Shown piece after piece: positions 10,283 to 64,000 of a stretch of DNA of 64,000 nucleotides. The notes beneath the pieces were generated by a model. That model did not search any database. It worked only from the letters and a program-made list of their open reading frames with translations, and was not told where the DNA came from. Position numbers and translations under genes: made by a program. The stretch is from a virus. The stretch is taken from IMG/VR virus record IMGVR_UViG_3300046780_000484, positions 1 to 64,000 of that record, one strand, 5' to 3'. How positions within the stretch are numbered: position 1 is the stretch's first letter; the number at the start of each line of letters is the position of its first letter.

Positions 10283-11569
10283 TCACAGCCCCGGACCACC
10301 CTCCTGGGCCGTCAGCGGGCCGTCAGCGGGAAAACGGGAGTCGTCGGCAAGGGCCGCTTCGAGGGCCCGGCGGGTCCTGTCCTCGGCGTCGGGCATCAGG
10401 TGCGAGTAGGTCTTCAGCACCAGCGCGCCGCCGTCGTTGTGGCCGAGGTTCCCCGCGACCGTCCTCGGGTCCACCCCGGCGGAGATCAGCGTCGAGACGT
10501 ACAGGTGCCGCATCATGTGGCAGCCGTTCTCGCGGTCGATCTCAAGCCCGGCCGCCAGCAGCGCCGGCCGCCAGACGTGCGTATTGAACCCGTGCCGCCG
10601 GATCGGGGCACCCGCCCGCGTGGTGAACAGCAGATCGGCGGTCACCATCCGGCCGTGGCGCCGGTCCCCCGGCTCGTGCCACGGCAGCGTCACCGCCACG
10701 GCGGGGAACGCGGCCAGGTGCGCGGCCAGGGCCTCGGCCGTCGGGGCGGCCAGCGGCACGTCGCGCTCCTTCTTCCCCTTCGGCGGGGCGAAGTGCGGGC
10801 GCCCGCCGACAAGTTTGACCTGCTGCCGGATATTCACCTGCCGCCGCAGGAAGTTGATCTCGTCAACGGACAGGCCGAAGATCTCCGACTGCCGCAGCCC
10901 GAGCCCGGTCCCCGCGTCCACCACGGCGGCGAGGCGTCGCGGGAGCGCCGCGCGGACCGCGGCGGCCTGCGGGCGCGTCCAGGGCTTGAGGCGGCGGTGC
11001 GTCGCCTGGGGCAGCTGCCGGGCGAGCCCCGCGCAGGGGTTCACGCTGACGCGCCCGTCCAGCGCGGCGGCGAGCATGACTGAGTTCAGGTGGGTGAAGA
11101 CCTTGGCGACGGTCGACGGGGCCAGCCTTAGCCCGGCGAGCCACGCCTTGATCAGCGACGGGCGGCCGGCGAGTTCGTCCAGCCTTTTCATGCCGAGATC
11201 GGGGAAGACGTGCAGCCGCATCCGGGTCTCGACGGCCTCGCGGGTCACCGTGTCGAAGGTCTGCGCCTTCAGCCATTCCTCGGCGTACTTCCGCAGCGTG
11301 ATCCGGCCCGCGTCGGGGTCGCGGTAGGTGCCGCGCTTGAGGTCGGCGTCGACCTCGGTCTTGAAGGCTTCCGCGGCGGCCTTCTTATCGAACGACCGGC
11401 TGCGCTCGCTGCCGTCGGGGTCCTCGTAGCGGACCCGCCAGCGGCGGCCCGTGCCGTTGCGGGGTCGCGCTTCCTTTGCCTGCTTCCCGTCCGGCCCTGC
11501 GGCGGTGCGGAACCAGCGGTCCTCGATGTGGCTAATCGGGCTCACCTGCCTTCTCGTCCGTGTCCTCAC
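10283..11569 (-). CDS. int: Tyrosine recombinase / phage integrase
   Basis: 428 aa, site-specific recombinase for lysogeny. An N-terminal AP2-like arm-binding segment (RWRVRYEDPDGSERSRSF) is followed by a SAM-like core-binding domain (TLRKYAEEWLKAQ) and the catalytic domain. The catalytic domain has Arg in GLRQSEI (about residue 228), His-x-x-Arg in HMMRHLYVS (about 351), His in LGHND and the nucleophile Tyr in TYSHLM (about 386). All required residues are present, so it should be active. The GTG at 11569 lies inside the upstream repressor gene; a GTG at 11545 is an alternative start. Co-transcription with the repressor is likely. Confidence 0.95.
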   Translation of the reverse strand: MRTRTRRQVSPISHIEDRWFRTAAGPDGKQAKEARPRNGTGRRWRVRYEDPDGSERSRSFDKKAAAEAFKTEVDADLKRGTYRDPDAGRITLRKYAEEWLKAQTFDTVTREAVETRMRLHVFPDLGMKRLDELAGRPSLIKAWLAGLRLAPSTVAKVFTHLNSVMLAAALDGRVSVNPCAGLARQLPQATHRRLKPWTRPQAAAVRAALPRRLAAVVDAGTGLGLRQSEIFGLSVDEINFLRRQVNIRQQVKLVGGRPHFAPPKGKKERDVPLAAPTAEALAAHLAAFPAVAVTLPWHEPGDRRHGRMVTADLLFTTRAGAPIRRHGFNTHVWRPALLAAGLEIDRENGCHMMRHLYVSTLISAGVDPRTVAGNLGHNDGGALVLKTYSHLMPDAEDRTRRALEAALADDSRFPADGPLTAQEGGPGL

Positions 11570-53214: not shown

Positions 53215-54345
53215 TCAGAACAGGGTGGCGGCCAGAGGCTTCCCGTGGACGGCGAGGTCAGCCAGGGCCTTTTTGCGGGCGAGGGCGACCGGAGCGTCAT
53301 CGTAGAGGGCAGCAAGGAGGCGCAGGACGCGCACGGTCCCGCCCACCTGCACGCACCACGTCGTCGTGCTCGGCTTCTTCGGGGTGGCGTGCACGTTAGT
53401 GCCGATGAGCGCGTTGACCCAGGCCTCATATGCCTTCGCCACGGATTCGCTACCGGTCAGTTGCGTGAAGACGCCGCGCTCGTTGATGGTGATGCTGCCA
53501 TCCCCGTCGACCAGTCCGCGCCAGTAGTGCGGCATCAGGACGGCAGGGCCATCCCAGGGCTCAAGCACATCCGTCTTGCGGCGAATAATGCCGTTGTTCA
53601 CCAGGGCTTTAGCCAGCGGAGGCGAGCAGACGGCGAGCATTGAGACGGGAACCATCTTCCCGTAGGACTCTTCCTCGAAATCGCGGATCGGACGCCGGGC
53701 CTTCAGTGACCCGTGAAGCGTTACGAGGTGGTCCCGGTCCTTGCGGGCCAACTTGACCTGAAGACGCAAGTACTCCCGGGTCCCCCTGGTGAATCCCGTT
53801 ACGCATCCGTCTGCGCCAAGGAAGCCGAGCCAGTAGGCCTTGTCGGGGGTGTCGATCTGGTCGAAGTAGCCGGGGTTGTCGCAGGCGATCCGCTCCCTGC
53901 GCCCGATGCCCAGTTCTTCCAGCACGTTGTAGACGCTGGATGAATGGCAGCCGAGCACGCGCCCGATCTCCGGGGCATCCATGCCGCTCTCGTACAGGCC
54001 GGGGACGCGTTCGCGGAGTTCATCGGCGAGCCGGTGCGGCTTCCGGTCTGGCACGCTGCCATGACGGCGCAGCACCGCTGTGATGGTGTGCTCAGTACGC
54101 CCCGACCTGCTGACGATCTCAGTAAGCGGCACGCCGTCTGCGTACAACTGGAGGATCTTCGCCTCATCCTCGGGCGAGGTCCGGGTGTTGAGTTGCCCAC
54201 GGTCGGCAGCAACGCCCTCCTTGCGAAGGGCGTTGCCGACCGTGTACGCGCTGAAGCCGGTTTCATCGGCAATCTCTTGCCATTTCATCCCGGCCTGATA
54301 CATGGCGGCGATACGCCGCCGGTCCTCTGGAGTAGTGCGTCTCAT
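53215..54345 (-). CDS. LAGLIDADG homing endonuclease with three helix-turn-helix units
   Basis: 376 aa. The first 150 residues have three HTH units (EIADETGFSAYTVGNAL, TEIVSRSGRTEHTITAVL, EIGRVLGCHSSSVYNVL). Two LAGLIDADG motifs follow: YWLGFLGADGCV (about 185) and YWRGLVDGDGSI (about 290), each with the catalytic Asp. It should cut a long site. It lies 40 bp after capsid exon 2, outside the intron, with a TAAGCT box 6 nt before its ATG and a hairpin over the start. Likely partner of the capsid intron (collaborative homing). Confidence 0.9.
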   Translation of the reverse strand: MRRTTPEDRRRIAAMYQAGMKWQEIADETGFSAYTVGNALRKEGVAADRGQLNTRTSPEDEAKILQLYADGVPLTEIVSRSGRTEHTITAVLRRHGSVPDRKPHRLADELRERVPGLYESGMDAPEIGRVLGCHSSSVYNVLEELGIGRRERIACDNPGYFDQIDTPDKAYWLGFLGADGCVTGFTRGTREYLRLQVKLARKDRDHLVTLHGSLKARRPIRDFEEESYGKMVPVSMLAVCSPPLAKALVNNGIIRRKTDVLEPWDGPAVLMPHYWRGLVDGDGSITINERGVFTQLTGSESVAKAYEAWVNALIGTNVHATPKKPSTTTWCVQVGGTVRVLRLLAALYDDAPVALARKKALADLAVHGKPLAATLF

Positions 54346-54384: not shown

Positions 54385-56544
54385 CTAACTGTAGGGGCTG
54401 ATGTCGCTCACCTGGAGACCCTGAAGGATTCCAGAGTAGAACGGCGCATGTGCGACCAAAGACCCCAAAAGGAATATCGAGTACCTAAAGGTCGCATCTA
54501 TGACAGGCCACGCGCAAGGTGTTACATCTACCCAAAACGGACAGATGGGCGGGTCATTTCTGCCGCGCCTCTGCATCTTCGCTGGTCAATGCAGTTCGGA
54601 ACGTCTCACGATCTGCCGTCGCCCGGCCCGTAATGCCTCGGGCCGACGCCGGTTACACAGATCCGGCACATACGCTCTCTGCACACCGCCAGGCATCGAC
54701 GGTGCTCACGATTCCCCTGTTGCTACAGCCGGGGTTTCCTGATCAGTGCCGTTATTCGACGGAGGTCACCCTCCGAAGCCGCCTGATTACTAGTTGACGG
54801 AAACGTAGTCCTGTACGCAGGTCATCTCCCACGCGTTGTCCACGTGGCTCCACGTCTGCGGGAGCTGGTAGGACATCAGCAGCGCCGTGCCCTGGGACAT
54901 CCAGGGGTGCACGGTCAGCTTCACGGTCGACCTCGTGACGGGGTTCACGAACTCCGCCACGGCAGCCCCGGCGCGAATGCCGGAGATCTGGTCCTGGGAG
55001 ATGTTGAGAAGGTAGTTCAGGCCCGCGCCCTGGGTGAGCATGTCGTTCGCGAGCCGCATCAGGTCGCCGCCGTCGGCGACGATCTCGGACGGGTCAGCCC
55101 GGTACACGCCCGGGGTGACGTTGTTCATGCCGTTGTTCTCCCACAGCCCGTCGAGCGCCGTGAAGATGGCGTTCGTGCTGAGGTGGGTCCCGACGGACTG
55201 GTTGACGTAGCCGCCCTGCCACACGTTCGCGGCCTCGAACCCGACGTTCGCGTACGGGCCGGAGCCGGTGTCGGACAGGCCGGACAGCACCGGGATGAGG
55301 CCTTCCATCCGCTGGCTGGAGCCCGTCCCCGTGTCCGTCGCCGACGCGGTGTTCGCCGTGGCGACCGCGCCCTGGATGGTGAACCGGATACCGCCCACCG
55401 AGTTCGCGGTCTGCTTGCCCGTGGTCGTGACGCCGGCCTGCACCGACGTGCCGACCTGGAGGAACCCGTTCGCCCTCGAGGCCGAGGAGTTCGTCGACAC
55501 GTAGATGTTGTACTGCTGCGCCCCGGCGACCGGGGTGATCACGACGTCGACGACGTTGCCGGTGGTCAGCGGGGTGTCCGAGGTGAACGAGCTGACCGTG
55601 GTCTCGCCGAAGTAGTTCAGCGCGGTCACCGCGACGGCGAAGTGGGTGCCGCCGCCTGTGATGGCGGTCTCGTTGGAGCCCGCCACACGCTGGGTGATGG
55701 CAGGCGCTGCGGGGGTCGCGAGGTTCTGGGACGAACCCGCGATCATCTGATATTCCTCGCCCAGCATCATCTCTTGCAGCAGCACGAGATTAGCGAGGGC
55801 GGAGATGTCCTCAAATCCCTGACCCTGGAACTGGGCCAACCAGCTGAGCGACTCACTGAGCCCAAAAAACCTGTAGGGCACGTTGAGCCGGTACTGGGTC
55901 TGGGACCCGGCGCCGGGGATGTTGAGCGGCCAGGTCGAGCCGATGCCCGTCTGGCCGGACTGGACGAGTTCCGGCAGGGAGATGTCGATGACACCCTGGC
56001 CGCCGGTCTGGCTGCCGGAGATGCCCAGGAGGCCGTAGACCTGCTTGGACAGGCCCTGGCCGGCCGGGCGGGGGAACTTGTTGCGGAAGAGCGTGTACAC
56101 GGGGTACACGAGCCGCGAAGGCGCCGCGAGATCGAACGGAACGAGCCCGTACGGCGCACCCGCCGTCCCGAGGTTCTGCGCGGTGAAGTTCTTCCGCACG
56201 TCGGCGTCGGCGCGAAGCCGGTACGCCAGCGGGGCGAACTGCGGGTTCGTCGCGAACTCCGTCGCCAGGCTGCCGATCACCGTGTCCGAGTCGTGGCGGC
56301 CCTGGACCGTCGCGGCCTTGGTCCGCAGCATCAGGTCATGGCTCTTGGTGAAGATCGTCCCGCCGTCGGACGCGTCGTCCAGGGGGATGCCCTTGGTGAC
56401 GTGGCCGACGCCCTTGACGGCCTTGGCCGCGGACTTGGTGATCGCTTCCTCGAAGTTCCTGCCGGACGGGGGGGCCATGCGCGGCGCTCCCCCTGCCCCC
56501 ATCTGGGGGCCTGCCGCCTCATCGGCGGCGTACGTTACTGCCAC
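54385..56544 (-). CDS. Major capsid protein, split by a group I intron
   Basis: Exon 1 is 56544-54797, exon 2 is 54514-54385; joined they are 1878 nt, 625 aa, in frame. The unspliced frame stops at 54790 soon after QDYVSV. Splicing restores QDYVSVAWPVIDATFRYS and the end SGILQGLQVSDISPYS, a normal C-terminus for HK97-fold capsid proteins of actinophages. The N-terminus holds FRNKFPRPAGQGLSKQVYG. A variable middle domain (about residues 280-390) has repeated Thr/Ala beta segments. Lies after a protease-scaffold gene, the usual order. Confidence 0.88.
54515..54796 (-). ncRNA. Group I self-splicing intron, 282 nt
   Basis: Exon 1 ends in U and the intron ends in G, as group I introns need. P1: exon CCGU and intron C1 pair with GGCGG at intron 14-18, U.G at the splice site. 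P2: GGAGG-GUGA-CCUCC. P3: CGGCAC with GUGCCG. P5: CCCC...GGGG. The Q-like element AAUCGUGAGC is present. P7: GAGCGU with ACGUUC, flanking P3' and P8 (GAUCUG/CAGAUC) in the right order. P9: CUGCAU/AUGCAG. No ORF is inside; the LAGLIDADG gene lies just outside. Confidence 0.88.
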
Positions 56545-56559
56545 ATGTCTCCTAAAAGA

Positions 56560-59500
56560 TCATGGGGCTGCCTCCCGTCCCAGTGTCAACAGGGACTGAC
56601 CGGCAGCCTCACGGATGCCTGGATCGGAGTGGTTGTAGTAGGTCTTCTCAAGGTTGCGCCGGATCATGTCCTGGGACCGCGCCGCGGCCTCAGCTACGTC
56701 GGGGACGGCCGCCGGCCGCCTCGACTTGATGACCTGGGGCTGGAACGCCAGGCCGCTGAACGCGGCCGTGGACGGGTCTGGCTGGTCAGCGATGGCGTCG
56801 ATGACGCGCTGCTGCTCAGCAAGCTTGGTGGTGTAGGTCTCGTCCTGCTGCTGGATCTTCTCCAGGAGAGGGGCGACGGCCTTGGTCACTGCGGCCTCAA
56901 TGTCAGCGGGGCCGAAAGAGGCGGCGGCGGGAGGAGCGGCCGGGGTGCCAGGCGGCAGCACGAGCACCTTGCCGCCTGCGGCCATAGCCGACTTCTCAAG
57001 GCCAGCCTGGATGCGGGCGATGTCGCCGGGGGTCGCGTCGGCGTTCGGCGCGAAGGTGATCGCAGGCTCAGCGGCCTTCTGGGCGAACTGGCGGCCGAGC
57101 TTGGCGCGGGCCTCGTCGACGGTCATCGAGCCGGACAGGACCTTCTTGCCGAGCTTCTTCCGCTGCTTCTTGAAGCCCTTGTAGATGTCGGCGTCCATGA
57201 ACAGGCCGTCCCGCTCAGGCTCGGCCTTGAGGGCAGCGACGGGAGCGCCGGCCCTGGTCGGAGGATTGGCGGCGATGGCGTCCAGGTCCAGCTGAAAACC
57301 CTCGCCCTTGCCGATGCCCGCAGGCTGGGGCACGGGGTGGTTCTCGGCCTGCTGCGGACCGTCCAGGGCCATGGGGCACACCGGGGGGAACTGGCGGGAC
57401 AGGTGCTCGTGCATCCGGACGAGGGCCTGCCGCTGGGCTTCCTTCTCCATCGCCGCGTAGGACAGCTGGGTGGGGACGCCCTGCTCGGACGGGTACTCGA
57501 ACGACGCCTTCATGAAGCTGGGCGACGGGGACTGGTGCCCGGACGACAGCGGCGGCCGGTCGAAGCTGTGCGCGTCCGGGGCGCTGCTCGCGACCTGCGG
57601 GGAGGTGTTCGGCCCGCCGTGGTCGGTGGCGTACGCGGACCGTCCGTCCGTCAGGACCGGGCGGTTGTACGACTGCGGGGACACGCAGCCCGGCGTCGGG
57701 TACGACCCGGGGCCGGGGTTGGCGTCACGGAACGCCTTGTGCAGCTCGAGCCGCCAGTCGTTCAGGTCGGCCGGGCTGGCGGTCTTCAGCAGCAGGGCCG
57801 CCTGCCAGGTCTCCTGCGCCTTCATGGCGGCCTCGAGCGGGCCGGCGGCGGCGGCGAGGGTCTTGCGCTGCCACGCCCCGGAGTCGATCAGGGTGCCGAG
57901 GTCGGCGTACGGGTGGTACTTCGCGACCTGCTCGGGGTGGAACGCGGGGCAGGTCAGGTCGTGGAGGCGGCCCAGGTCCTCGTCGGCGCCGGTCGCCTTG
58001 AACCGCAGCAGCGCGGCGACTTCCGGGTCCGGGGCGAGGTCGGGCACCGCGGACTTGCCGCTGTCGCCGTCGGCCATGCCGGCGTCGGCCTCGAAGGATT
58101 CCGCCTCCGCCCCGTCCGGCTCCCGGTGCGCGGGGACGGGCTTCATCGACTCGCCGACCGCACCCGACGCGGACGCCGGAGTGGCGCCCTTGGTCGACGC
58201 CGGGCCGTCGGACTCCATCAACTCGGGGACGGGTGCGCAGGTCATGTCGTGGGTGCCGGCCACGCCTGCCGCCTGCGCGGGGGTGGTGTGGCACTTGGAG
58301 CACACGATGTCGCTGGTGCCCTCGACCCCGGTCCACAGGTGGTCGGTGACGGACTTGCACGCCTTGGAGGCGTCGTCCGAGTCATCGCTGCCGGAGTCGT
58401 CGTCAGCAGGCTTGTTGAGCCACGGGGGGAGCTTCTTCTTCTTGGCCTTGGCCTTCTTGACCGGCTTGTCCTTGGGCTCGGGCTCGGGGTCCTTGGTGAC
58501 CTCAGGCTCGGCTTCGGCCTTCGCCGCCTGCTCTTGCACGGCCGCCCTGGCGGCAGCCGCCTTGTCGGCAATGACATCATCGAGCAGCGCGCGGCCGGCC
58601 TCTTCCAGGCTGCCGCCCTTGCTCACGCCGTCGCTCTCATCGAGCGGATTGGCCACACCCAGCTCCTCTGCCCTGCGGGCGATAAGGCGGCGCGCAGCCG
58701 CTGTGTCACCGTGACCCGAGCGCGCCAGCGTGGCAGCGTTCCCCAGGTCCCCGGCGTTCTCGATCGGGTACGACAGGTTCGGGAGTGCCTTGCCGTCCGC
58801 CGCCAGCCGGCGCCTCGTCGCGGTGTCGATGTCCCGCTTGTAGACCGCCGCCTCGGCGTCCGTGACGGCCTTGAGGGCGAGGTCGTCGTAGTGCTGGCCG
58901 ACCGCGAGCTTGCGGCTCAGCGTGTTCAGCTTGGCGATGTCGGCGGGCGAGATGGACAGGGACAGGCTGGCGGGCAGGTCGACGTTCACCAGTTCGTCGG
59001 GGGCCGGCCACGTGTCGGTGCCGCCGCCCTTGGTCAGCAGGTTCCCGCCGGTCACCTTGGCGAGCAGCGCGGGAGGTGCCGCCTTGGCGATCTCTTCCTG
59101 CGAGCCGACCATCTCGCCGGCGAACCCGAAGTCGTCCCCGCCACCCGCCGACTTGCGGGTGATCTGGAACTTGCTGGAGAAATTGGAACCCCGGTCGACC
59201 ACGCTCAGCTCGGCGATCTTGCTCAGCCCGTCCGGCCGGCCGGTGATGATGCCGCCCGTGGCCGCGCCGCGAGGGTCCAGGGCCTTGTCCGGGCCGAACT
59301 TGATGTGCGGCATCGAGATGCCCACCGAGTAGTCGTTCAGGACCCCGGTGCGGACGAAGTGCTTGGCCAGCGGGTCGCAGATCAGGCTCTTGACGTAGTG
59401 GCCGTCCGTGGTGACCTGAACGTCGTGGCCCTTGCCGACCGGCCGCTTCGGGTCGTGGCTCATGCGGACGTTGCCGCCCGTCGCGGCCCATTCCTTCAGC

Positions 59501-59685
59501 GCGACGGCACTCCACTGCGGGTCCACGATCTGCCGGTCCGCGTCCACGGTGCCGTCCGTGGCCTTGCCGACAATCCAGATGTCAGGCGTCCCGTCGACCG
59601 GGTTGATGGAGTCGGTGTCCTCTTGCTTCTCGATCGGGAAGCTGAAGTGCAGCAGCTCCTGATCGGCATCAAGCGTTGTGGCCAC
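56560..59685 (-). CDS. Prohead protease-scaffold fusion
   Basis: 1041 aa. Residues 35-180 (IVGKATDGTVDADRQIVDPQW ... VRMSHDPKRPVGKG ... LNDYSVGISM ... IAELSVVDRGSN) resemble a U35/S78-like capsid maturation protease, with His in MSHD and Ser in YSVGIS as candidate catalytic residues. A long low-complexity middle (Glu/Lys/Pro runs, two CxxC ... C patterns) leads to a helical coiled coil near 930-960 (VTKAVAPLLEKIQQQDETY), as in scaffold domains. Directly upstream of the capsid gene. The length is well above usual protease plus scaffold. Confidence 0.8.
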   Translation of the reverse strand: MATTLDADQELLHFSFPIEKQEDTDSINPVDGTPDIWIVGKATDGTVDADRQIVDPQWSAVALKEWAATGGNVRMSHDPKRPVGKGHDVQVTTDGHYVKSLICDPLAKHFVRTGVLNDYSVGISMPHIKFGPDKALDPRGAATGGIITGRPDGLSKIAELSVVDRGSNFSSKFQITRKSAGGGDDFGFAGEMVGSQEEIAKAAPPALLAKVTGGNLLTKGGGTDTWPAPDELVNVDLPASLSLSISPADIAKLNTLSRKLAVGQHYDDLALKAVTDAEAAVYKRDIDTATRRRLAADGKALPNLSYPIENAGDLGNAATLARSGHGDTAAARRLIARRAEELGVANPLDESDGVSKGGSLEEAGRALLDDVIADKAAAARAAVQEQAAKAEAEPEVTKDPEPEPKDKPVKKAKAKKKKLPPWLNKPADDDSGSDDSDDASKACKSVTDHLWTGVEGTSDIVCSKCHTTPAQAAGVAGTHDMTCAPVPELMESDGPASTKGATPASASGAVGESMKPVPAHREPDGAEAESFEADAGMADGDSGKSAVPDLAPDPEVAALLRFKATGADEDLGRLHDLTCPAFHPEQVAKYHPYADLGTLIDSGAWQRKTLAAAAGPLEAAMKAQETWQAALLLKTASPADLNDWRLELHKAFRDANPGPGSYPTPGCVSPQSYNRPVLTDGRSAYATDHGGPNTSPQVASSAPDAHSFDRPPLSSGHQSPSPSFMKASFEYPSEQGVPTQLSYAAMEKEAQRQALVRMHEHLSRQFPPVCPMALDGPQQAENHPVPQPAGIGKGEGFQLDLDAIAANPPTRAGAPVAALKAEPERDGLFMDADIYKGFKKQRKKLGKKVLSGSMTVDEARAKLGRQFAQKAAEPAITFAPNADATPGDIARIQAGLEKSAMAAGGKVLVLPPGTPAAPPAAASFGPADIEAAVTKAVAPLLEKIQQQDETYTTKLAEQQRVIDAIADQPDPSTAAFSGLAFQPQVIKSRRPAAVPDVAEAAARSQDMIRRNLEKTYYNHSDPGIREAAGQSLLTLGREAAP

Positions 59686-59737
59686 ACGGCTCCTTGCTGT
59701 CGGCGTCCATGACGGGGTGGCCGCCCGTCAGGCGTGC

Positions 59738-60457: not shown

Positions 60458-60525
60458 GCGCTCGCGGGCCGGAGGCGGAGCCGCTTCCTGGCGCGCTGCT
60501 CGTCCCGCAGCGGCCAGCCGGTCAC
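60454..60525 (-). CDS. Possible 23-aa linker ORF
   Basis: GTG 60525 to TGA 60454 reads TGWPLRDEQRARKRLRLRPASA. It overlaps both neighbours by GTGA, which is the only support; very basic and short. Confidence 0.3.
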   Translation of the reverse strand: MTGWPLRDEQRARKRLRLRPASA

Positions 60526-60680
60526 AGCACTGCGCCGGTCTCAGCGTCCCGGTTCAGGAATACGACCGGGCTCCCGTCATTCGCGACGAACGCTATCCAG
60601 CTCGCGTCTGCCGGTTCGATCCACCCCTGGTGTCCGGTGCTCTCGGGGTGGCCGTACCTGCCTACGGTGATGTTGCCCAC
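60522..60680 (-). CDS. Small hypothetical late protein
   Basis: 52 aa from GTG 60680 after GAGGAGGTG. GNITVGRYGHPESTGHQGWIEPADASWIAFV and FLNRDAETG. Small beta protein. A 130-bp gap upstream separates it from the portal fusion and holds a possible TAGAAT -10 box. Confidence 0.6.
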   Translation of the reverse strand: MGNITVGRYGHPESTGHQGWIEPADASWIAFVANDGSPVVFLNRDAETGAVL

Positions 60681-60811
60681 GGCTCTCACCTCCTCTCGGT
60701 GCATGCCTGGCCAGCATCGAAACGCGACCTGCGGAAACGTGGAGTCTTTGCAGGTCAGATGAGCTGGCCAACTAATGCTGCGGTGCCATCGGGGCACTTC
60801 GTAAAGCTATT

Positions 60812-63800
60812 CTACTTACCCTCTTCCATCTGCGCGTGCTGTGCGGGCCAGTAGCCGAGCGCCCTGTGGTGCATGAGATTTGCGTAGCCCTTGGCCTGCT
60901 CGTCGGTCATGTGGGCGTGCTCTTTCAGCAGCGCGACCGCGCGCATGAAGTCGCCGTCGGTACCCCAGGCAATTTCGTCGGCGTAGGCGAAGTCCGTCGG
61001 GCCGCCGTGGGCTTCGTGCGTCCAGTACTCGCGTAGCGTCTCGGCGTCACCCTTGTTCGCGGGGTCGTCGCCCTGATGCAACTGACTGCTGTGCGTCTGC
61101 AGCGCTTGGGGCATCCACCGGGCCGGGACCGTCCCCACGTAGGCGAGGACCGGCTTGCCGAGCTTGAAGTGCCGCGCCATTCCCCGGTGATGGCCGTCGA
61201 TGATGATCTCCCGGCCGTCGGGGTGGTTCGCCTGGTGGACGAGGACCGACGGGTTGGTGTGCGCCCCGCCCCTCGCGATGTCCTTGGCGAACCGCTGTAC
61301 CGCTTCCGGCTGGTGGCTGGCGGCCCACGAGTCGATGTCGTCGTCGTCGACGCGCGACCAGGGAACGTTGACGGGCCCGACCCATGTCGAATGCTTGACC
61401 CATTCCAGCGCGGAGTCCGGGAAATTGCCCTCTAGCTGGGCATATACGTGCCGCCATTCCACCGGGTTCGCGTCGGTGACGTGCTGCGCGCCCTTGGGGA
61501 GGTCGTGGACGACGTTGCTGCCGGCCTCCGGGGACCATTCCTCCACCGTCTCGGCCGGGTCGAACGCCTCAGGCTCGGCGGTGTGCGGCTTGTACGGCTC
61601 CGGGGTTCGTGCCGGAACGGAGCCGACTACCGGGTGCCCGGAGTCGTTCGCGGACTTCACCCCGGACGGCGGCACCCCGGTACGGCCGCCGACGGGAGAG
61701 GCGGCAGGGGTGAGCGTGTTCTGCGGCGCAGGCCACATCTCGTCGTGCGCGTACCCCTGGTTCGGGAACGCCACGGCGGGAGGGTTTGGCTTGCGCCCGC
61801 GCGAGGGCATCTCCCCGTCATCCCCGCCGCGGGGCTCGAGCGTGTCGTGCGGCTCCGGCTCGGCCATGTCGTCGGACCAGCGCGGCGGTTCCCCGCCCGC
61901 GCTTCCGGCATCGCCTGGAACGGCCCCAGGGCCCGCGTCAGGCCATTCCGAGCCGTCCGCCCTGTGCGGATAGGGCCAGCGGCTGCCGACCGCCTGGAGC
62001 GCCTGCGAGGCCGGGGTGAGGGTGAGGACTTCCCCGTTCGCGTTCACCATGCGCTGGAGGGCCTTGGTGACGTGCTCCCGCAGGGTGATGCCGTGCTCCC
62101 AGTCCTCGCGGAACTTCGGGGCCAGGTCCAGGGCGGCGATCTCCTTGCGGCGGAACCACGCCGCGCCCCGCGTCTCGTCCGGGGTGGCCCCGTCGAGGGT
62201 GGGGTGGAAGTACGCGGTGTCGCACAGCCACAGGTACACCTGCGTCTTGCCGTCGTCCTCCACATGGTGGAAGGTCCCCGCGATCCGCAGTTCAGGGAAC
62301 TGGCCGATCTCCTCGGCCGTCTCCCGGAGCACAGCGGTCCACGAGTCCTCACCCACGTGCGGCTTCCCGCCCGGCATGCCCCAGGTGCCGTCGGGGCGCT
62401 GCTGGAGCAGGAACCGCCACTTGCCGTCCTCGTCGCGGGCGCGCAGCAGCAGCCAGACGAGGCGCGTCTCGTCGTCTACGGCGGCGGATTTACCCAGGTG
62501 CGCCAGCGGCGGCTCAGCTTCCACGCCTGCTGGCGCAGGTACGCATCGGCAAGCCGGATGGACCAGCCCCAGTACGCCCCCCGCCGAGAAGACGGCATCG
62601 AGCGGGATTTCTCCGTCATCGGCGGCGTCCTTGCACAAGTCACAGGCGTTAGGCGACAGCAGCAGGTGCTTGAACTGCACCCCGTGGTCGCGGTAGCACT
62701 GGATGGCCGCGCTGTTGACCGCCCTGGCCACTTCGGTCCGGGCGATGAGTTCCGCGCGGACGCTGTTGTTCCCCAGCCCGGTGCGGGCGACCTGCTGGAG
62801 CCAGTGCTCCCCCTCGGAGCCGATGAACCCGGCCAGCGCCTCAGGGTCCTCCCCCTTGGCGCTGAAGTCCGCGGGAGCGCCCGTGACGAGGGACTTGGCC
62901 GCCGCGTAGCCGAGGTGCCACGCTTCGGTCCACAGGGGCGCCAGGACGCCGGAGAAGACGTCCCGCACCTCGTCGGAGATCAGGTCCCGCAGGGTGGCGT
63001 TGCTGACGTACATGCCCCCGGTGGCGGCCTTGCGGCGCAGGTCCGAGCCTTTGGCCTCGGCGTCGTGGAACGCCTGCCCGATGAGGTTCTTGTACGCGCC
63101 GACCAGGCCGAGGTCGCGCTCCCAGCCGGGCCAGTGCGCGGCGGCCTTCGTCACCTCGCCTGCCGGCGGGTATGAATCAGGGACGGGCCGGGGGCTGCCG
63201 CAAGCGACCGGCCCGTCGTCGTCAGCCTTGAGGCAGATGTCCCCGGCGCGTTCCACAGCCGTGTCGATCAGCACGCCCCTGGCGATGTCCTCGGCGATCA
63301 TCCCGAGGGCGCGTTCCGGGATGTGCTCCGTCACCCACGTGCTGATCTGCCGGCCCTTGCGCAGGTGCCGGGCCAGCGCGCCGAGCTCGGAGTCGACGGC
63401 CTTCTTGCGGCTGCCGGCGACGGACGACCGTGACGGGGTGCCCCCCGTGCGCGGGCCGGGCGACTGGATCGCTCCGGCGGCTGCGGAGTGGGCGGGGGTG
63501 ACAGACTCCCGGTGCGGCGACACTGGTGCGGGATGCGAGCCGTTCGGCCGGGTCTGGCCGCCGCGGCGGACGGCCGGCTGGCTGTTCCGGGTCCGCGACG
63601 ACGTGGTGCGCTGCCCGGAGTTCGTCCCCTGGCCCCCGGCGCCGCCGCCCTGCATGTTCGCGATGAGCTGCGGGGCCATCGAGAACGGGATCGGCCCCTG
63701 CGCCGTGAACACGACCGGCTCGCCCGTCTCCTGCAGGCCCCACGGGGGCATGTCCAGCCGGTCCCGCACCTCGTCGATCGAGGAGATGCCGTTCTGCACC

Positions 63801-64000
63801 TGCTCGACGCCCAGCTGCGTGATCGCGGCCTTGTCCTCGTCGTCCTGCAGGCCCTCGAAGGAGAACTTCATGTCGTGCTGGCCGCAGATGTCCTGCAGGA
63901 CGTAGTTGGCGATGCCGCACAGGGTCATCAGCAGCGGCTTGGTGGACTTGCGGGACTTCGGGTCCCGGGAGGCCTGCGCGCCGAGCTTGATGCCCGACGC
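60812..64000 (-). CDS. Portal-MuF-Nudix-ParB-like fusion, 5' partial
   Basis: At least 1062 aa; the frame is open at the right edge. Residue numbers count from ATG 63928. The start (NYVLQDICGQHDMKFSFEGL, IDEVRDRLDMPPWG) is a portal C-terminus. A MuF head-morphogenesis part follows (about 390-463: ARTEVARAVNSAAIQCYRDHG, SPNACDLCKDA, VHPACRCVP). Next is a Nudix domain (about 495-600) with a perfect box GKPHVGEDSWTAVLRETAEEIG written here by key residues G-E-REx2EExG. Last is a ParB/Srx-like domain (about 820-935) with IIIDGHHRG. Domain linkers are Pro/Gly rich. Such a four-part fusion is unusual. Confidence 0.85.
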   Translation of the reverse strand, partial: ASGIKLGAQASRDPKSRKSTKPLLMTLCGIANYVLQDICGQHDMKFSFEGLQDDEDKAAITQLGVEQVQNGISSIDEVRDRLDMPPWGLQETGEPVVFTAQGPIPFSMAPQLIANMQGGGAGGQGTNSGQRTTSSRTRNSQPAVRRGGQTRPNGSHPAPVSPHRESVTPAHSAAAGAIQSPGPRTGGTPSRSSVAGSRKKAVDSELGALARHLRKGRQISTWVTEHIPERALGMIAEDIARGVLIDTAVERAGDICLKADDDGPVACGSPRPVPDSYPPAGEVTKAAAHWPGWERDLGLVGAYKNLIGQAFHDAEAKGSDLRRKAATGGMYVSNATLRDLISDEVRDVFSGVLAPLWTEAWHLGYAAAKSLVTGAPADFSAKGEDPEALAGFIGSEGEHWLQQVARTGLGNNSVRAELIARTEVARAVNSAAIQCYRDHGVQFKHLLLSPNACDLCKDAADDGEIPLDAVFSAGGVLGLVHPACRCVPAPAGVEAEPPLAHLGKSAAVDDETRLVWLLLRARDEDGKWRFLLQQRPDGTWGMPGGKPHVGEDSWTAVLRETAEEIGQFPELRIAGTFHHVEDDGKTQVYLWLCDTAYFHPTLDGATPDETRGAAWFRRKEIAALDLAPKFREDWEHGITLREHVTKALQRMVNANGEVLTLTPASQALQAVGSRWPYPHRADGSEWPDAGPGAVPGDAGSAGGEPPRWSDDMAEPEPHDTLEPRGGDDGEMPSRGRKPNPPAVAFPNQGYAHDEMWPAPQNTLTPAASPVGGRTGVPPSGVKSANDSGHPVVGSVPARTPEPYKPHTAEPEAFDPAETVEEWSPEAGSNVVHDLPKGAQHVTDANPVEWRHVYAQLEGNFPDSALEWVKHSTWVGPVNVPWSRVDDDDIDSWAASHQPEAVQRFAKDIARGGAHTNPSVLVHQANHPDGREIIIDGHHRGMARHFKLGKPVLAYVGTVPARWMPQALQTHSSQLHQGDDPANKGDAETLREYWTHEAHGGPTDFAYADEIAWGTDGDFMRAVALLKEHAHMTDEQAKGYANLMHHRALGYWPAQHAQMEEGK

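What the first reader, a model, noticed from the sequence alone, without database searches (positions are those of the whole stretch)
60812..64000. Portal-MuF-Nudix-ParB-like polyprotein
One frame joins a portal C-terminus, MuF domain, a Nudix hydrolase with a perfect Nudix box and a ParB/sulfiredoxin-like domain with IDGHHR. MuF proteins in other temperate phages carry toxin-like C-terminal domains, which suggests the last domains may be effectors delivered with the virion or removed by proteolysis.
Basis: partly seen in the sequence, partly recalled or inferred. Interest (0 to 1): 0.72.

Follow-up and report, generated by a model that had tools for sequence, protein, structure and literature searches.

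The report
Phage portal carrying built-in nucleotide enzymes
In a group of soil phages, the protein ring through which DNA enters the head is made in one piece with a Nudix hydrolase and a ParB-like domain; this is a real, widespread variant of known head-borne phage enzymes, and it probably lets every particle carry enzymes inside its head.

Summary
It is not a sequencing artefact: dozens of independent contigs carry the same fusion in one open frame. The Nudix catalytic residues are intact in 50 of 50 non-redundant relatives and evolve under purifying selection, but the box is not 'perfect' (T and Q at the two hydrophobic positions). The ParB-like assignment holds by sequence and by fold.

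Portal-MuF-Nudix diverge together (r 0.75-0.86), while ParB alleles (r ~0.4) and the last module are exchanged between phages. Domain order and gene splits vary, and two deeply separated Nudix clades pair with this ParB domain. Relatives add 2H phosphoesterase, ADP-ribosyltransferase, PI3/4-kinase-like and Zeta-toxin-like domains.

Best reading: a portal-anchored 'polyvalent' head protein that loads nucleotide-acting enzymes into the capsid. Delivery, cleavage and substrates are inferred. Nudix-portal/MuF fusions are already published, so this is a new variant of a known kind.

The parts
60812..64000 (-). In-window part of the 1490-aa fusion gene (residues 429-1490); the gene starts at contig position 65284, outside the window
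   Evidence: same architecture in one open frame in many independent contigs
63524..64000 (-). C-terminal part of the portal domain (whole domain residues 91-587, contig 63524-65014)
   Evidence: phrog_2662 portal E 8.8e-48; PF04860 E 9.8e-10
62510..63139 (-). MuF (minor head) region, residues ~716-925, with CxxC...H...C pattern
   Evidence: phrog_4728 E 1.6e-9 and phrog_115 E 9.4e-8; invariant Cys/His; helical model
62060..62479 (-). Nudix hydrolase domain, residues 936-1075
   Evidence: PF00293 E 2e-13; Foldseek to many Nudix structures E ~1e-6; dN/dS 0.14-0.32 to most close relatives
62300..62368 (-). Nudix box GKPHVGEDSWTAVLRETAEEIGQ, residues 973-995
   Evidence: catalytic positions kept in 50/50 relatives; hydrophobic U positions not kept
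61460..62059 (-). Pro/Gly-rich linker, residues 1076-1275, with well conserved short stretches (SRWPYPHRADG..WPDAGPGAVPG)
   Evidence: alignment
61055..61459 (-). ParB/sulfiredoxin-superfamily domain, residues 1276-1410
   Evidence: phrog_1033 in 45 of 49 members; PDB profile hits SerK and SbnI; Foldseek PadC/KorB/Srx
61184..61198 (-). DGHHR motif (residues 1363-1367)
   Evidence: invariant in alignments; 65/65, but the pattern was part of the search query
60812..61054 (-). C-terminal module phrog_6439 (residues 1411-1490), plus stop; exchanged for another module or absent in relatives
   Evidence: alignment of three C-terminal states; stand-alone gene in many of 108 phage records matched
56560..59685 (-). 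Downstream 1041-aa head protein whose N-terminus looks like a prohead serine protease: candidate for releasing the fused domains
   Evidence: weak phrog_9427 head maturation protease E 0.017; motif pattern read by eye
10397..10945 (-). Tyrosine integrase match (lifestyle marker)
   Evidence: PF00589 E 3.6e-17

Best explanation
It is a portal-anchored polyvalent head protein. The N-terminal portal builds the DNA-entry ring; the MuF region and everything after it continue from the portal's C-terminal side, which in other tailed phages faces the capsid interior, so each head should receive about twelve copies of a Nudix hydrolase and a ParB/Srx-type nucleotide-binding domain. The Nudix domain most likely cleaves an NDP-X type metabolite, signal or cap, and the ParB-like domain most likely binds or hydrolyses nucleotides and/or nicks DNA. 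The pair is most likely released by the maturation protease and leaves with the DNA to act in the first minutes of infection (takeover or counter-defence). Shown here: architecture, intact catalytic residues, purifying selection, recurrent pairing, modular exchange of ParB and the last module. Inferred: interior location, twelve copies, cleavage, delivery, substrates, purpose.
For: Intact fusion in many independent contigs. Of 65 non-redundant ParB-domain ORFs, 48 also hold a portal, 44 MuF and 50 Nudix; in four more the Nudix is in the adjacent portal-MuF-Nudix gene. Nudix catalytic box intact 50/50; dN/dS 0.14-0.32 in 7 of 8 comparisons. Two deep Nudix clades, separated by 100/100 branches, both pair with this ParB domain, one of them in either order; the ParB tree mixes the Nudix types and orders (15 changes). 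Relatives add 2H (L018, L080, L105), ART (L080), PI3/4K-like (L101) and Zeta-like (L084) domains, a typical polyvalent repertoire (PMC5512222). Known biology: SPP1 gp7 (MuF) is brought to the procapsid interior by binding the portal (PMC6316719); Nudix and 2H domains fused to MuF/portal were proposed to be packaged and injected (PMC9503650).
Against: The domains are covalently tied to the portal, which is not known to leave the virion, and no cleavage site was shown. The Nudix diverges in step with portal and MuF (r 0.82 and 0.75), as a fixed part of the head would. No virion proteomics was found for any relative. Substrates cannot be read from sequence: structural hits include ADP-ribose-, NTP-, RNA- and dinucleoside-polyphosphate enzymes alike.
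Confidence: 0.55

Rival explanations
1. The fused domains stay with the portal and help handle DNA: the ParB-like domain grips nucleotide or DNA at the portal mouth during packaging or ejection, and the Nudix is a companion enzyme or a structural spacer.
For: A Kitasatospora prophage fuses the ParB-like domain directly to the portal without Nudix, with MuF as the next gene. ParB folds are nucleotide- and DNA-binding. The Nudix diverges with the portal. SPP1 gp7 supports initiation of infection without being a toxin.
Against: ParB alleles are exchanged independently of the portal they would have to fit (window vs L010: portal 90% identical, ParB 53%). The ParB domain is a separate gene in several relatives. 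An intact Nudix catalytic box in 50/50 argues for catalysis, not spacing.
Confidence: 0.2
2. The enzymes act in the producing cell late in infection, as free or newly made portal subunits (for example nucleotide clean-up or shutting off a late defence signal), and are not delivered.
For: As a head gene it is presumably made in bulk late in infection. Fusion to the portal needs no further step for this. Split forms could work in the cytosol.
Against: An enzyme needed only in the cytosol has no reason to be tied to portal/MuF repeatedly and in several orders.
Confidence: 0.18
3. It is a MuF polymorphic toxin with a cognate immunity gene, used in competition between lysogens.
For: MuF domain with a variable C-terminus; integrase in the virus; a 91-aa ORF follows at 60522-60797 (-).
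Against: No known toxin domain in the window protein. The small genes commonly found downstream in relatives carry a module that also sits in head proteins, not a known immunity family. Only 1 hit among 84,980 bacterial and archaeal genomes, so it is rare in sampled prophages.
Confidence: 0.05
4. Assembly or sequencing artefact joining separate genes.
For: L017 and L019 show frame breaks inside the region.
Against: Many other contigs are open throughout; synonymous changes exceed non-synonymous ones in the domains and the linkers between them.
Confidence: 0.01

Closest known systems
Head-packaged Nudix (T4 NudE-like) fused to MuF, portal or capsid protease (Iyer et al. 2022, PMC9503650)
   Same: Nudix domain fused to portal and MuF; proposed to be packaged and injected
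   Different: Here a ParB/Srx domain and an exchangeable last module are added in the same chain; membership in the NudE clade was not shown
Polyvalent proteins (Iyer et al. 2017, PMC5512222)
   Same: Many effector-type domains in one chain, coded among virion genes, shuffled between relatives; 2H, ART and ParB-type domains are typical parts
   Different: Built on a complete portal; its ParB domain is not the DdrB-like family by Pfam (PF18763 no match)
Portal of Arthrobacter phages Mufasa8 and Sonali (gene 3)
   Same: Portal, Nudix and MuF in one protein; record labels include 'portal and MuF-like fusion protein' and 'MutT/NUDIX hydrolase'
   Different: Order portal-Nudix-MuF, Nudix of the other deep clade, no ParB-like domain found
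Portal-MuF fusions of Microbacterium phages, clusters EA and EB (PMC7302621)
   Same: MuF fused to portal
   Different: No Nudix mentioned in that paper
MuF polymorphic toxins (Jamet et al. 2017, PMC5576092)
   Same: MuF domain with variable C-terminal domains in phages
   Different: There MuF is a separate gene after the portal and carries known toxin domains plus candidate immunity genes
ParB/Srx superfamily (ParB, KorB, PadC, sulfiredoxin, SbnI, SerK)
   Same: Fold and the G-H-H-R pocket motif
   Different: No Cys of sulfiredoxin in the motif; SerK Glu30 position is Ala here; fused to portal/MuF

Membership tests
Nudix hydrolase superfamily | Nudix box with catalytic Gly/Glu/Arg/Glu residues | tested here: met
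   PF00293 E 2e-13 over its cut-off; catalytic positions 50/50 in relatives; U positions not hydrophobic in the window copy
Nudix hydrolase superfamily | Nudix fold | tested here: met
   Foldseek 259 matches E<=0.001, top hits Nudix enzymes
Nudix hydrolase superfamily | Hydrolysis of an NDP-X substrate | not testable with these tools
   needs enzyme assay
T4 NudE-like phage Nudix clade | Sequence grouping with NudE | not tested
   no NudE sequence was brought into the tree; NCBIfam hits are MutT-type and others, all far below cut-off
ParB/Srx superfamily | ParB/Srx fold | tested here: met
   pLDDT mostly 80-95 over the domain; PadC, KorB, Srx, SbnI prob 0.97-1.0, though E only 0.015-0.1, the model including a low-confidence tail
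ParB/Srx superfamily | Sequence similarity to ParB-type families | tested here: met
   phrog_1033 in 45 of 49 members, best 2.1e-9; SerK 2.6e-4 and SbnI 4.5e-3 with the profile
DdrB-like ParB of polyvalent proteins | Match to PF18763 (ddrB-ParB) | tested here: not met
   no match in the virus even at E<=10
Free serine kinase (SerK) | Glu30 (mutated as E30A in the solved entries) | tested here: not met
   that column is Ala in the family profile
MuF superfamily | MuF domain | tested here: met
   PHROG head-morphogenesis E 1.6e-9; Pfam MuF below cut-off in the window protein, over cut-off in relatives such as L084 and L086
MuF polymorphic toxin | Known C-terminal toxin domain | tested here: not met
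   only Nudix and a ParB-like domain in the window protein; ART and Zeta-like domains occur in relatives
MuF polymorphic toxin | Small downstream immunity gene | tested here: inconclusive
   a 91-aa ORF at 60522-60797 exists; no evidence that it is an immunity gene
MuF polymorphic toxin | Carried by a temperate phage | tested here: met
   tyrosine integrase E 3.6e-17; lysogeny itself not shown
Polyvalent head proteins | Several effector-type domains in one chain, coded among virion genes, shuffled in relatives | tested here: met
Polyvalent head proteins | Packaged in the virion and injected | not testable with these tools
   needs virion proteomics and infection assays

The most novel reading that the evidence does not exclude
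Portal rings of a large, almost uncultured phage group act as a standard loading dock for a two-part nucleotide-attacking cassette (Nudix plus ParB/Srx). The pair came together more than once, with Nudix domains of two deep clades, because the two activities work in series against a host nucleotide signal, and interchangeable terminal modules (phrog_6439 and the LPxYIQN type), also found in capsid proteases and ADP-ribosyltransferase proteins of head gene clusters, act as head-cargo tags.
Probability: 0.2. Interest if true: 0.75.

Novelty: new variant of a known kind. Interest (0 to 1): 0.52.

Why it matters
If the domains are head cargo, tying effectors to the portal would give every virion a fixed number of enzyme copies, a loading method different from scaffold- or MuF-binding cargo. 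The repeated pairing of Nudix with the same ParB/Srx family, along with 2H, ART and kinase-like domains, points to nucleotide signalling or NAD/ADP-ribose chemistry at the start of infection, where several bacterial defences act. Split and fused natural versions make the need for fusion, cleavage and delivery directly testable.

Tried and rejected
Sequencing artefact: rejected by independent contigs. 'Perfect Nudix box': rejected in detail, T and Q at the hydrophobic positions. SerK-type serine kinase for the ParB-like domain (best PDB sequence hit): not supported, the Glu30 position is Ala. DdrB-like ParB: no Pfam match. ADP-ribose-type Nudix assignment: no substrate-specific evidence; PDB hits spread over many specificities. 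Searching cultured phages with the ParB-like and Nudix segments by tblastn gave nothing; relatives came from IMG/VR instead. One alignment (A4) had its first sequence in the wrong frame and was replaced by A5. Literature searches for ParB fused to portal and for virion proteomics of such fusions found no direct case.

Full report
WHAT IS THERE. The window is bases 1-64000 of an 81,627-base virus record. The frame reported at 60812-64000 (-) runs on to a start codon at 65284; the protein has 1490 residues. Scans give portal 91-587 (phrog_2662, 8.8e-48), MuF-type minor head region ~834-926 (phrog_4728, 1.6e-9), Nudix 946-1056 (PF00293, 2e-13) and phrog_6439 at 1407-1488 (8.8e-15). The ParB-like stretch between Nudix and the end has no Pfam hit in the window copy. 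Neighbours fit a head module: upstream terminase; downstream a 1041-aa ORF with a weak head-protease match and a 584-aa ORF matching phrog_13692, which I take to be the major capsid protein from its position.

IS IT REAL. At 70% G+C long frames are cheap (the antisense of the neighbouring genes is open for 1622 aa), so length is no proof. The proof is comparative: IMG/VR holds close relatives (57-79% identity over most of the protein), most of them one open frame of 1400-1600 residues. A scan with the ParB-like domain found 140 related stretches, 80 kept. Within close relatives the dN/dS for Nudix is 0.14-0.32 (0.83 to L018), for portal 0.09-0.35, for ParB 0.10-0.59.

THE NUDIX DOMAIN. All catalytic box positions are kept in 50 of 50 non-redundant relatives; the two hydrophobic box positions are not (T and Q in the window). 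The model matches Nudix enzymes of many specificities (RenU, NrtR-Nudix, RppH, MutT, Ap4A hydrolase), so the substrate is open. A tree splits the Nudix domains into two deep clades, 16 and 36 rows, with 100/100 support; the Arthrobacter phage Nudix domains lie in the smaller one. This means either separate acquisition or very old divergence.

THE PARB-LIKE DOMAIN. 45 of 49 members match a ParB-like PHROG (best 2.1e-9). The 49-sequence profile finds SerK (2.6e-4) and SbnI (4.5e-3) among solved structures, and the model matches PadC, KorB, sulfiredoxin and ParB (best matches prob 0.97-1.0, E 0.015 or worse). So it belongs to the ParB/Srx superfamily. It is not SerK-like in catalysis (Glu30 position is Ala) and gave no match to the DdrB-ParB family. 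The invariant DGHHR lies where ParB proteins have the GxRR nucleotide box (from general knowledge, not tested). The search itself used DGHHR as one of two patterns, so its 65/65 presence is partly by construction.

MODULARITY. Of 65 non-redundant ParB-domain ORFs, 48 hold a portal, 44 MuF, 50 Nudix. Orders seen: portal-MuF-Nudix-ParB (commonest), portal-Nudix-ParB, portal-ParB-Nudix, portal-ParB-MuF, MuF-ParB-Nudix and, in a Kitasatospora prophage, portal-ParB with MuF as the next ORF. In L019, L044, L077 and L078 the ParB domain is a separate ORF directly after portal-MuF-Nudix, with a ribosome-binding site and ATG in L078. Identity between pairs of phages is correlated for portal, MuF and Nudix (r 0.75-0.86) but weakly with ParB (r 0.39-0.43): the window portal is 90% identical to L010 but the ParB only 53%, while L011 has 78% and 88%. 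The ParB tree needs 15 changes of Nudix type, order or presence. After ParB the close relatives have phrog_6439, another module (LPxYIQN...ALMR), or nothing. Both modules also occur elsewhere: phrog_6439 as a small gene in Mycobacterium and Gordonia phages and in a protein annotated as capsid maturation protease in Microbacterium phage Cece; the other in an ADP-ribosyltransferase gene beside portal and MuF in Streptomyces phage Araceli and in a Microbacterium capsid protease.

OTHER CARGO. Related MuF or portal proteins carry 2H phosphoesterase (L018, L080, L105), ADP-ribosyltransferase (L023, L025, L029-L031, L080), PI3/4-kinase-like (L026, L027, L101) and Zeta-toxin-like (L084) domains.

MECHANISM. 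SPP1 gp7 (MuF) reaches the procapsid interior by binding the portal, and only ~25% of virions lacking it are infectious (PMC6316719). Nudix and 2H domains fused to MuF or portal were proposed to be packaged and injected (PMC9503650); polyvalent proteins combine such domains (PMC5512222). Here the portal is part of the chain, so I expect about twelve copies inside each head. Because a portal stays in the particle, delivery requires cleavage, and that step is unproven. The Nudix moves with the portal, while ParB and the last module are exchanged, so the polymorphic part starts at ParB, not at Nudix.

KNOWN OR NEW. Portal-MuF fusions (PMC7302621) and Nudix-portal/MuF fusions (PMC9503650) are known. 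The combination with a ParB/Srx family tied almost wholly to portal/MuF genes, its exchange between phages, and the shared terminal modules were not found described in the papers searched. I rate it a new variant of a known kind. Only 1 of 84,980 bacterial and archaeal species genomes gave a hit, so the phages behind it are mostly uncultured; the Kitasatospora hit suggests actinobacterial hosts.

LIMITS. The 80 loci kept are the best matches to the window, which favours close relatives. Metagenome frame breaks cannot be told from real splits without a start signal. No delivery, cleavage or activity was tested.

Noticed in passing
L020 2159-7507; also L046, L048, L070: Large insertions (~280-460 residues) split the portal domain in frame; L046 and L020 show LAGLIDADG-like matches, so these are probably inteins. 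L028 has an intein-like insert (PF14890, 5e-4) between MuF and ParB.
   Followed up: partly
L110 6519-8459 (Kitasatospora humi): 647-aa prophage portal with the ParB-like domain fused directly to its C-terminus and MuF as the next ORF: the only hit in 84,980 genomes.
   Followed up: partly
window 60812-61054 and L009/L011/L012 C-termini: Two interchangeable terminal modules are shared by portal fusions, capsid maturation proteases and an ADP-ribosyltransferase of head gene clusters in actinophages; function unknown.
   Followed up: partly
window 53215-54345 (-): 376-aa ORF with LAGLIDADG-like stretches (WLGFLGADG, WRGLVDGDGS), a probable homing endonuclease downstream of the presumed capsid gene.
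   Followed up: no
window 54790-56544 (-): 584-aa presumed major capsid protein (phrog_13692) with what looks like an inserted Ig/Fn3-like domain (~residues 280-380).
   Followed up: no
L003 7292-9037 (-), contig 71292-73037: Terminase large subunit with an unusual C-terminal extension matching zinc ribbons (residues ~479-545).
   Followed up: no
window 54844-59712 (+): 1622-aa open frame antisense to the protease and capsid genes: a high-G+C artefact, and a warning about ORF length in this genome.
   Followed up: yes
L084 1696-7752; L080 5050-9954: Giant relatives: portal-MuF-Nudix-ParB-Zeta-like (2019 aa), and ParB-2H-ART (1635 aa) beside a separate portal gene.
   Followed up: partly
L087/L088 5698-12183, L090 3910-9663: ParB-like domain inside ~2000-aa proteins almost without Pfam hits and without a recognised portal within 6 kb; nature unknown.
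   Followed up: no
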